A stretch of DNA of 64,000 bases from Nitrospirota bacterium (GTDB taxonomy: Bacteria > Nitrospirota > Thermodesulfovibrionia > SZUA-242), in NCBI GenBank assembly GCA_016212095.1, contig JACRHH010000037.1, positions 1 to 64,000 on the forward strand, written 5' to 3'. The position numbers and the translations under genes are program-made. Below, in pieces: positions 1,783 through 4,232 of the stretch (positions within the stretch are counted from its first letter, which is position 1; every line of letters begins with the position of its first letter). Below the pieces are notes generated by a model. That model was not told the origin of the DNA, did not search any database, and was given only the letters and a program-made list of their open reading frames with translations.

Positions 1783-1995
1783 ATGGAATGTGCTCAGGAG
1801 AACAATCGGAAAAACTGCCCTTGCACCTACGAGCCGTGCGAACGCAAGGGGAACTGCTGCAAATGCCTGCGCTATCACAGAAGAAGCGGCGAGCTTCCGG
1901 CCTGCTTCTTCCACGCAGCGTTCGAAAAAAGCTACGATCGCTCGGTGGAGAACTTCATTGAAATGGTGCGGACGGTTGGGATGAGGATGGATTGA
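1783..1995 (+). CDS. DUF6485-type cysteine-rich small protein
   Basis: The 70-residue protein has eight cysteines, seven of them in the N-terminal half, arranged as C-x(8)-C-x-C-x(4)-C-x(5)-CC-x(2)-C, followed by RYH, LPACFF and a conserved YDRSVENFI segment. I recognise this pattern as the DUF6485 family; its function is unknown, and metal (Zn or Fe-S) binding is a reasonable guess. The ATG at 1783 has a strong Shine-Dalgarno sequence (SD, AGGAGGG) eight bases upstream, so it is preferred over an earlier start at 1747. The gene stands alone and converges with the TA cassette downstream. Confidence 0.8.
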   Translation: MECAQENNRKNCPCTYEPCERKGNCCKCLRYHRRSGELPACFFHAAFEKSYDRSVENFIEMVRTVGMRMD

Positions 1996-2011
1996 GGGGG
2001 ATTACCCCCTC
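1994..2011. terminator. Hairpin at the end of the DUF6485 gene
   Basis: GAGGGGG at 1994-2000 and CCCCCTC at 2005-2011 form a 7-bp perfect stem with an ATTA loop directly after the DUF6485 stop. There is no strong T-run, so termination is inferred from position and symmetry. The right arm overlaps the left copy of the 23-bp direct repeat. Before the TA cassette arrived, this hairpin probably lay right at the 3' end of the GAF gene and served both convergent genes. Confidence 0.5.
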
Positions 2012-2024
2012 GCCTCCCGCGCCC
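2002..2024. repeat. 23-bp direct repeat, left copy (flanks TA cassette)
   Basis: These 23 bases recur exactly at 2565-2587. The right copy is the last seven codons and the stop of the triple-GAF gene (plus two bases). The left copy is the same sequence without its gene. The two copies bracket the toxin-antitoxin pair, as expected for a cassette inserted at the 3' end of the GAF gene with target-site duplication. Confidence 0.85.
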
Positions 2025-2034
2025 TTGCTTCGAA

Positions 2035-2343
2035 TTACCTAATCGCATTCATGCGTTGCGCCACGAACCTTGGCCCGCGCTTGCCATGAATCACCGCAAG
2101 CACAACTATTCGTTGTTTTTCAAAGAGATAGACGATCTTGTACGGAAATCGCTTGATCAAATGCTTTCGTGCCGTTTTGTATTCCGGCGGGTGCGCTTCC
2201 GGATTCCTTGCCATGAAAGCCAGCGCCGCGTCGATCTGCAACAGAAAGTCGCGTCCCAGCCCATCACGTCTGGCCTCGTACCACGAAAAAGCGTCCTGCA
2301 AGTCGTTTTCAGCTTCCGGGCTGATGATGACCGCATATTTCAT
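2035..2343 (-). CDS. RelE/ParE-family toxin
   Basis: The 102-residue protein begins MKYAVIISPEAENDLQDAF and continues with a WYE..R.GLG.DFL segment and a C-terminal FPYKIVYLFE...IVVLAVIHGKR block, the hallmark of ParE/RelE toxins (ribosome-dependent mRNase or gyrase poison; which cannot be told here). The ATG at 2343 overlaps the antitoxin stop (ATGA), which fixes the start and shows translational coupling. A longer start eight codons upstream would lie inside the antitoxin gene and is rejected. It is the second gene of a two-gene cassette enclosed by direct repeats. Confidence 0.88.
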   Translation of the reverse strand: MKYAVIISPEAENDLQDAFSWYEARRDGLGRDFLLQIDAALAFMARNPEAHPPEYKTARKHLIKRFPYKIVYLFEKQRIVVLAVIHGKRGPRFVAQRMNAIR

Positions 2344-2561
2344 CTGCCCGACAAAATCCTCTTGCAAACCTCATCCCACGGAGAACCTGCATCTGGATTC
2401 ATGTGATACGCTTCCAGTCGCTCGTCAATAACCGCCTTTTCCTCATTGGTCAGCTCAAACGCCTCCTGATTTGCCGCAATCGTATCCCAGATGTCTTCGA
2501 CAAGCTGAATCCTTTCAGGCACTGAAAGCGCAAGCGTGTCGGTTGCCGTAATCCGCTTCAT
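2340..2561 (-). CDS. Addiction-module antitoxin (RelE/ParE-associated)
   Basis: The 73-residue protein starts MKRITATDTLALSVPERIQLVEDIWDTI, matching the short antitoxin family (addiction module component, TIGR02574-like) with an L-S..ER..LVE.IWD core. Its C-terminus carries the toxin-neutralising extension ending in ILSGR. It precedes and overlaps the toxin by the ATGA junction. Its start lies just three bases past the stop of the triple-GAF gene, inside the direct-repeat-bounded cassette. A second pair of the same type sits at 31.5-32.0 kb. Confidence 0.85.
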   Translation of the reverse strand: MKRITATDTLALSVPERIQLVEDIWDTIAANQEAFELTNEEKAVIDERLEAYHMNPDAGSPWDEVCKRILSGR

Positions 2562-2564
2562 TTC

Positions 2565-2587
2565 TTACCCCCTCGCCTCCCGCGCCC
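2565..2587. repeat. 23-bp direct repeat, right copy
   Basis: Exact copy of 2002-2024. It forms the 3' end, including the TAA, of the triple-GAF gene, so the presumed insertion left that protein intact. Confidence 0.85.
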
Positions 2588-4232
2588 GCGCGTTTTCTAT
2601 CGCTATGCCGCTCTGCTCGGCAAGCACCGTGGCCACATCCACCTCGTCCTCGCTGAAATCACGCTTGAAGGCGCAGTAGAGCCGCATTTCGCCGATAACA
2701 TCGCCCCGCAGCATGATCGGAACCACCAACATGCTGCCAATTCCCTCCTCCTTCGCCTCCTTCGGGTAGATGATGCGAGGATCGTTCACAACGTCATACA
2801 CCATCACCGGAATGCCGGACAAAGCTTCGCCAACGCTTCGGGCCGCGTCAACCACGCCCTTGTTCAGGTATTTCTGGCTCAGGCCGTGCGACGCGGCAAT
2901 AACCAGTTTCTTCCCTTCGGCGTCCAGCAGCCTTATGGTGGCGGCCTTCAGGTTCATGATCTTCGGAACCGTGCGCACGATAACCTGAAGCACGTCCTCG
3001 GTGCGCGGAGCGGAGCCGACTGCCATCGCTACCTCGTGTATGGCTTTCAGGTAACGCGCCTCGCGGGCCAGACGGTGGAACATCCGCGCGTTTTCTATGG
3101 CCGTGCCGCACTGAAGCGCAAGCGACGACGCAAAGTTTATCTCGTCGGCGCTGAATTTTCTTGGCTGGTTTCCAAACACACGGAGCACGCCGATGACGCG
3201 GTTGCCTGATTTTACCGGAAGCGACAGTATGCTTCGAACAGGCGGATCGCAGTCGCGAAGCTCTATACCCTTCGGCTCGCGGTCTTCAATAACCGAAGGC
3301 TCGGCGCGGAGATCGTCCGCCCTTCGCTCAACGTCCGTAAGCACCTCGGAAATACATGCGCTCGATATTCCGTGGAGGGCTGCAAGCTCAACCCCGAATC
3401 CGTCCTCATCCAGAAGGTGAATGGCGGCGGAATCCAGATCCATCGCCTCCGGAACCTTGTTCACTATCATGTCGAGCACGTTTTCGATGTCGAGTGTGGA
3501 GCCGACCGCGGCGGCAACCTCCTGAAACAGGTTCAGGTAGCGCCGCTCGCGCGAAAGCTTCTTCTCGAAAAAACGGGCGTTCATTATGGCTATGGCGGCC
3601 TGTTCGGCGATTGCGGCCATGAAGCGCAGGTCTTCGTCGCTGTACGCCATCGGCTCGGCGGAATACATGCGAAGCACGCCGATCACGTCGTCTTTAAAGC
3701 GAAGCGGCACGGAGATGATGCTGCGGATTCCCTCGGCCTCGGCCTCGGCGCGGTAGCGCGCGTTCGGGTCGGCCAGTATGTCGTAGATCGAAACCGGCTT
3801 TCCGGCAAGCGCGTCCTCGATGCTCTTGTCGTACTGCACCGGCCCCTTCCCGGCGTAACGCTTGCTCAGGCCGTGATATGCGGCAACCTCAAGCTGGCTG
3901 GTCTGCCTGTTCAGAAGGCGAAGCAGGCTGGCCTTCACGTTCATCACCTTCACGACGTTCGTGACGATATGATCGAGCACTTCCGACAGCGTGAGGCTGG
4001 CGCTTATCGCCTTGCAGATCTGCTGATAGCTCTGGAGGTAGACCTTCTTGGTGAAAATCGTCTCGGCGCAGTCCGGACACATCGAGTGGGTGAATTCGCC
4101 GAAACCTTCGCGCGTGAGAACAATTTCGAGTTTTTCCCAGACGTCGGCGCCGGTTCGAATGCTTTTGCACCATCCGCAGATCGGCACAAGGCGGCTGCCC
4201 CGCGCGTTTGAATCGTTTTCCGCATTTTGCAT
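2565..4232 (-). CDS. Triple-GAF-domain sensory protein with N-terminal zinc-knuckle-like segment
   Basis: The 555-residue soluble protein opens with C19-x2-C22 (PICGWCKSIR) and C52-x2-C55 (CPDC), the short Cys module often found at the ends of PAS/GAF sensors. Three successive GAF domains follow (about 65-220, 235-385 and 395-550). Each has an internal 'AAxHGLS' or equivalent, a 'GxP' segment, a central 'S.L.VPL...VIGVLR.Y' strand pair and the closing 'AEQAAIAI.NAR' helix. No kinase, GGDEF or other output domain is present. It may act through partner binding, perhaps with the nearby RsbW-like ATPase. The ligand is unknown. Confidence 0.85.
   Translation of the reverse strand: MQNAENDSNARGSRLVPICGWCKSIRTGADVWEKLEIVLTREGFGEFTHSMCPDCAETIFTKKVYLQSYQQICKAISASLTLSEVLDHIVTNVVKVMNVKASLLRLLNRQTSQLEVAAYHGLSKRYAGKGPVQYDKSIEDALAGKPVSIYDILADPNARYRAEAEAEGIRSIISVPLRFKDDVIGVLRMYSAEPMAYSDEDLRFMAAIAEQAAIAIMNARFFEKKLSRERRYLNLFQEVAAAVGSTLDIENVLDMIVNKVPEAMDLDSAAIHLLDEDGFGVELAALHGISSACISEVLTDVERRADDLRAEPSVIEDREPKGIELRDCDPPVRSILSLPVKSGNRVIGVLRVFGNQPRKFSADEINFASSLALQCGTAIENARMFHRLAREARYLKAIHEVAMAVGSAPRTEDVLQVIVRTVPKIMNLKAATIRLLDAEGKKLVIAASHGLSQKYLNKGVVDAARSVGEALSGIPVMVYDVVNDPRIIYPKEAKEEGIGSMLVVPIMLRGDVIGEMRLYCAFKRDFSEDEVDVATVLAEQSGIAIENARAREARG

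What the first reader, a model, noticed from the sequence alone, without database searches (positions are those of the whole stretch)
2002..2587. Toxin-antitoxin cassette inserted at a gene end, bracketed by exact 23-bp direct repeats
A 540-bp RelE/ParE TA pair lies between two perfect 23-bp copies. The right copy is the 3' end and stop of the triple-GAF gene; the left copy is the displaced original, still attached to the hairpin that once followed that gene. This is the footprint of a site-specific or replicative capture that spared the host gene, with no transposase or integrase. It looks like a minimal mobile TA unit.
Basis: seen in the sequence. Interest (0 to 1): 0.7.

Follow-up and report, generated by a model that had tools for sequence, protein, structure and literature searches.

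The report
Toxin-antitoxin genes inserted with target duplication
A two-gene toxin-antitoxin unit was spliced onto the end of a host gene together with an exact 23-base copy of that gene's end, and the same kind of scar surrounds many other toxin-antitoxin and phage-defence genes in this genome, which suggests how such genes can settle in chromosomes without a transposon.

Summary
Two exact 23-bp copies (2002-2024, 2565-2587), the only ones in the 2.97-Mb genome, bracket 540 bp, of which 527 bp is a PF09720 antitoxin / ParE toxin operon. The right copy ends an intact triple-GAF gene; the left copy is the displaced gene end, still forming a perfect hairpin with its old neighbour. The insert has no transposase or integrase. 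In 1.15 Mb (39%) of the same genome I found about 18 comparable scars, each with a different 20-160 bp duplicated host-gene end (dnaB, mfd, acn, rsmI, cas6, mltG, ispG, csb2 and others), with mostly toxin-antitoxin or defence cargo. An inverted-repeat control was nearly empty. This matches 'insertion with long target duplication', described for restriction-modification genes; here it applies to toxin-antitoxin modules and recurs across one genome. Best mechanism: capture of short linear DNA by one homologous and one illegitimate join (the mltG-ispG scar looks like this), or break capture. No close relative with an empty site was found, so mechanism and mobility are inferred. New variant of a known kind; interest 0.55.

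The parts
2565..4232 (-). host gene: triple-GAF protein, 555 aa, intact; its last 23 bp including TAA are the right copy of the duplication
   Evidence: ORF; three GAF matches PF13185/PF01590
2565..2587 (-). right (in-gene) copy of the 23-bp target duplication; also supplies a purine-rich Shine-Dalgarno-like stretch just before the antitoxin ATG
   Evidence: exact repeat; SD role is inference
2340..2561 (-). antitoxin gene, 73 aa, PF09720 / TIGR02574
2035..2343 (-). ParE-type toxin gene, 102 aa from the ATG, overlaps the antitoxin stop
   Evidence: PF05016
2025..2564 (-). inserted segment, 540 bp, 527 bp of it coding; GC 0.51 against 0.57 for the window
2002..2024 (-). left copy: displaced former 3' end of the GAF gene
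   Evidence: exact repeat
1994..2011 (.). hairpin with a perfect 7-bp stem spanning the outer edge of the left copy only; likely the former shared 3' end/terminator of the GAF and DUF6485 genes
   Evidence: sequence; fold
1783..1995 (+). convergent neighbour gene, DUF6485 (PF20095), whose stop overlaps the hairpin

Best explanation
The TA operon was captured as a bare short DNA segment at the junction of the GAF gene and its 3' hairpin, by an insertion that duplicated 23 bp of the target, so the GAF gene kept its full end and stop. It is one of about 18 events of the same kind seen in 39% of this genome ('insertion with long target duplication'), mostly with TA or phage-defence cargo. Shown: the scar geometry, its recurrence with variable duplications of 20-160 bp, the cargo bias, no recombinase in the insert, and no Ku or reverse transcriptase in the genome. 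Inferred: the molecular step. I favour end capture without a dedicated enzyme: incoming linear DNA joined at one side by homologous recombination in the flanking gene and at the other by illegitimate joining back into the recipient gene end, or an equivalent break-repair capture. Selection keeps events at gene ends that leave the host gene whole, and addiction or defence keeps the cargo. The confidence given is for insertion with target duplication; for the one-sided homologous route specifically I would say about 0.4.
For: Exact unique repeat. Hairpin only at the displaced copy. Recurrent scars in own-genome stretches. Cargo identities. 5 of 24 PF09720/ParE modules are bracketed by strong repeats, against about 1.2% of random positions. 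Inverted-repeat control at the same spacing: 4 hits, maximum score 20. mltG-ispG scar: the displaced mltG end differs by 3 synonymous changes only, and an ispG start fragment sits at the end of the TA cassette, as expected for DNA from a relative carrying TA at the same site. No Ku, no RVT_1; ComEC present. Precedent for R-M genes: PMC3874152 and PMC3031569; one-sided homologous capture discussed in PMC2884548.
Against: No empty-site genome was available, so insertion is inferred from anatomy. The mfd scar is identical near the stop and diverged further in, the reverse of simple one-sided homologous capture. Nested scars at acn (50 and 46 bp) and csb2 (29 and 27 bp) reuse nearly the same end points, which random breaks would not predict. 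The other 19 ParE/PF09720 modules show no such repeat, so other routes, or old decayed scars, must exist. Pooled differences of 17 synonymous / 10 nonsynonymous also fit ordinary divergence after duplication.
Confidence: 0.75

Rival explanations
1. The repeats are attL/attR of an integrative element whose integrase was lost, leaving the TA as a remnant; elements that integrate in gene 3' ends carry a copy of that end.
For: Use of gene 3' ends, restored host genes, and mostly synonymous differences at mfd, cusA and mltG are what att duplications show (precedent from general knowledge: phage 21 and e14 in icd). A few tyrosine recombinases exist in the genome.
Against: About 14 different target sites with different duplicated sequences of 20-160 bp, some at gene 5' ends (rsmI, nadE, ispG). 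Inserts are 0.2-2.4 kb with no recombinase remnant; the window insert is 98% TA coding.
Confidence: 0.1
2. Each TA plus a piece of the host-gene end forms a small circle that excises and reinserts by homologous recombination between the gene-end copies, so the gene end acts as a portable attachment site.
For: Nested cassettes at acn, csb2, mfd and the contig-7 array reuse nearly the same copies.
Against: Repeats of 20-30 bp are at or below the RecA threshold quoted in PMC2884548. No circle or excised state was seen, and it does not explain the first insertion at each gene.
Confidence: 0.1
3. The repeat is coincidence or a dispersed genomic repeat.
For: GC-rich low-complexity look of the repeat.
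Against: Only two copies in 2.97 Mb even with 3 mismatches; expectation about 3e-6; other TA loci show the same geometry with other sequences.
Confidence: 0.02

Closest known systems
Insertion with long target duplication of restriction-modification genes (Nobusato et al. 2000; Furuta et al. 2010, as cited in PMC3874152 and PMC3031569)
   Same: Small selfish/addictive gene unit, no linked transposase, long and variable target duplication, chromosomal target.
Homology-facilitated illegitimate recombination (Acinetobacter, Pseudomonas stutzeri, pneumococcus; cited in PMC2884548)
   Same: One homologous and one illegitimate join capture foreign DNA beside a host gene; needs no Ku.
   Different: Not tested in this organism; the duplication outcome and the mfd pattern are not the textbook product.
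PF09720/TIGR02574-ParE type II toxin-antitoxin modules
   Same: Antitoxin then toxin, overlapping genes, both families matched.
   Different: The insert has almost no upstream DNA of its own, so its expression probably depends on transcription of the GAF gene (inference).
Mobile mystery proteins A/B (TIGR02612/TIGR02613)
   Same: In this genome such a pair is bracketed by a 29-bp exact duplication of a csb2-like gene 3' end.
   Different: Different families from the window's TA.

Membership tests
Insertion with long target duplication | direct repeat of target sequence flanks the inserted unit | tested here: met
   23 bp exact, unique in genome; about 18 comparable scars
Insertion with long target duplication | single copy at the empty site in a related genome | not testable with these tools
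   no near relative held; best GAF-gene relatives about 66% identical over part of the protein, in other families, without synteny
Insertion with long target duplication | duplication long (order of 100 bp) and variable between events | tested here: inconclusive
   variable, 20-160 bp across events, but the window's own copy, 23 bp, is at the short end
Insertion with long target duplication | no transposase or integrase in the unit | tested here: met
   insert holds only the two TA genes
Integrase-borne element (att repeats) | site-specific recombinase in or near the element | tested here: not met
   none in the 540-bp insert; phage-type integrases of the genome lie on other contigs
DNA transposon / MITE | terminal inverted repeats and a short fixed-length target duplication | tested here: not met
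   no shared insert ends among scars; duplications 20-160 bp
Type II TA, PF09720 antitoxin with ParE toxin | both families matched above curated cut-offs, adjacent and overlapping | tested here: met
Type II TA, PF09720 antitoxin with ParE toxin | toxin inhibits growth and antitoxin neutralises it | not tested
   needs an experiment

The most novel reading that the evidence does not exclude
Small TA and defence modules spread between chromosomes as bare DNA segments through one recurrent insertion process that duplicates 20-160 bp of a host-gene end and thereby spares the gene, making this a general route by which orphan chromosomal TA modules are acquired without mobile elements, and gene ends hot spots that take several modules in turn.
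Probability: 0.4. Interest if true: 0.75.

Novelty: new variant of a known kind. Interest (0 to 1): 0.55.

Why it matters
Chromosomal toxin-antitoxin modules are known to move horizontally, but many sit alone in the chromosome with no mobile element, and how they arrive is open. A scar that can be ranked by age (exact copies young, diverged copies old) at about 18 places in 39% of one genome gives a direct handle: it can be counted, its ends compared and its age estimated. It extends a mechanism proposed for restriction-modification genes to toxin-antitoxin and other defence cargo.

Tried and rejected
Viral-contig search with the antitoxin: no relative. Plasmid search: only 43-44% hits in cyanobacterial plasmids. 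Genome-contig search with the GAF protein: only distant relatives, so no empty site. Orthologous GAF genes in other families lack the TA but also lack synteny, so they are not a usable empty site. Ku-dependent end joining rejected: no Ku. Retro-insertion considered unlikely: no RVT_1. Rfam: only a tRNA in the window. Apparent repeats set aside as paralogous or tandem coding repeats or other repeats: L084, L130, L132, L075, L070, L128, L145, L082:1-550 (CRISPR-like), L129 (IS200-like/REP), L146. In 29 further PF09720 loci from the class only L112 was a clear bracket. In 29 ParE loci across the phylum L168 (29 bp exact) and L152 (117 bp) were clear; several others were dispersed repeats. So the pattern occurs elsewhere but is rarer than in this genome.

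Full report
What is there. Two 23-bp copies of TTACCCCCTCGCCTCCCGCGCCC lie at 2002-2024 and 2565-2587. They are the only matches in the 2.97-Mb genome, even allowing three mismatches. An exact direct repeat of this length within 2.5 kb is expected about 3e-6 times in 64 kb. Between them are 540 bp. Read on the minus strand: 3 nt, a 73-aa antitoxin (PF09720, TIGR02574), an overlapping ParE toxin (PF05016), and 10 nt. Thus 527 of 540 bp are coding.

Which copy is original. The right copy is the end and stop of an intact triple-GAF gene. The left copy, with sequence just outside it, forms a perfect hairpin, GAGGGGG-ATTA-CCCCCTC (1994-2011), whose loop holds the former GAF stop and whose outer edge overlaps the stop of a convergent DUF6485 gene. 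The right copy forms no such hairpin. The natural reading is that the GAF gene once ended in that shared hairpin, and the TA pair was inserted at the boundary with 23 bp duplicated.

It is not alone. A second PF09720-type/ParE pair on contig 9 of the same genome is bracketed by a different exact 21-bp repeat. A scan of 1.15 Mb of the genome then gave about 18 such scars. Target and duplicated length: cas6 3' end 41 bp, dnaB 3' end 74 bp, rsmI 5' end 77 bp, nadE start 22 bp, a cusA-like gene 3' end 125 bp, acn 3' end 50 and 46 bp (nested), a site beside hypE 45 bp, mltG 3' end 35 bp, ispG start 20 bp, csb2 3' end 29 and 27 bp (nested), mfd 3' end 160 and 31 bp (nested), downstream of gltA 54 and 42 bp, and an array on contig 7. 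The names of these host genes are my reading of the translated sequences, not profile searches.

Cargo. By profile search: VapC-type PIN, HEPN with nucleotidyltransferase, HicA, MqsA-like, Phd with RelE/YoeB-like, UPF0175, RelE/ParE TIGR02683, mobile mystery proteins A and B, an AIPR/AbiU-like protein, a Bro-N protein (PDC-S13), a DUF4143 ATPase (PDC-S01) and an IrrE-like peptidase. Some inserts carry genes with no TA or defence match (the 77-aa gene at nadE, the two-ORF insert at mfd apart from one marginal hit, part of the second acn insert). About 21 of the 59 stretches read were chosen around TA hits, so the cargo share is biased upward; but the scars at cusA, acn, csb2, mfd and gltA came from stretches chosen without regard to TA genes, and those at dnaB, rsmI, nadE and ispG were not the reason their stretch was chosen.

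Controls. Of 24 PF09720/ParE modules in the genome 5 are bracketed by strong repeats, against about 1.2% of random positions, a figure that itself includes the scars. Inverted repeats at the same spacing, which should share any compositional cause, gave 4 hits with a maximum score of 20. Direct repeats due to paralogous or tandem coding sequence were set aside by inspection, which is a judgement.

Mechanism. Ku is absent, as is RVT_1; ComEC is present. Duplications differ in sequence and length, so one site-specific enzyme is unlikely. The mltG-ispG scar is the most informative: the displaced mltG end differs from the in-gene end by three synonymous changes, and the TA cassette ends in a copy of the start of ispG. 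This is what one would see if DNA from a relative carrying the TA at the same site joined by homology in mltG on one side and illegitimately on the other. Pooled over genes, differences between copies are 17 synonymous and 10 nonsynonymous where unconstrained change predicts 23% synonymous (p about 1e-5); this may equally reflect the in-gene copy evolving under constraint after duplication. The mfd scar shows the opposite layout to simple one-sided capture, and nested scars at acn and csb2 reuse nearly the same end points; both are unexplained. By eye, cargo lies in the same direction as the host gene in 12 of 15 scars.

Known or new. Long, variable target duplications flanking restriction-modification genes are described (PMC3874152; PMC3031569; both cite Nobusato 2000 and Furuta 2010, which I could not read). 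These papers state this for R-M genes, and my literature searches found no report for TA modules; the library is partial. I therefore call it a new variant of a known kind. The pattern is present but rarer in other genomes of the class and phylum.

What is not shown. No empty site, no excision, no activity of the pair. The step from scar to mechanism is inference.

Noticed in passing
L141:2488-4757 (G000 contig 29): mfd 3' end carries two successive inserts; the 160-bp copy is identical over about 100 bp at the stop side and diverged, mostly synonymously, further in.
   Followed up: partly
L077:9573-11117 (G000 contig 35): mltG-TA-ispG start-mltG end-BroN-ispG: two alternative inserts at one gene junction lying in tandem, as if two alleles were joined.
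   Followed up: partly
L082:4593-6747 (G000 contig 10): Mobile mystery proteins A/B and an IrrE-like peptidase nested at the 3' end of a csb2-like CRISPR gene.
   Followed up: partly
L066:9383-10755 (G000 contig 7): Array of three related 30-135-bp repeats with a PF09720/ParE pair and a nucleotidyltransferase between them, next to a Phd-like gene.
   Followed up: partly
L129:15293-16060 (G000 contig 33): IS200-like/REP-associated transposase flanked by imperfect repeats; a different, known kind.
   Followed up: no
L146:1106-1850 (G000 contig 5): Palindromic 34-bp element (TTTTGTAGAGACGCAAAATCTTGCGTCTCTACAA) in several copies.
   Followed up: no
L152:1061-2174 and L168:1440-2138: Clear TA-bracketing duplications in other genomes of the phylum (117 bp at the 5' end of a gene that reads like aat; 29 bp exact).
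   Followed up: partly
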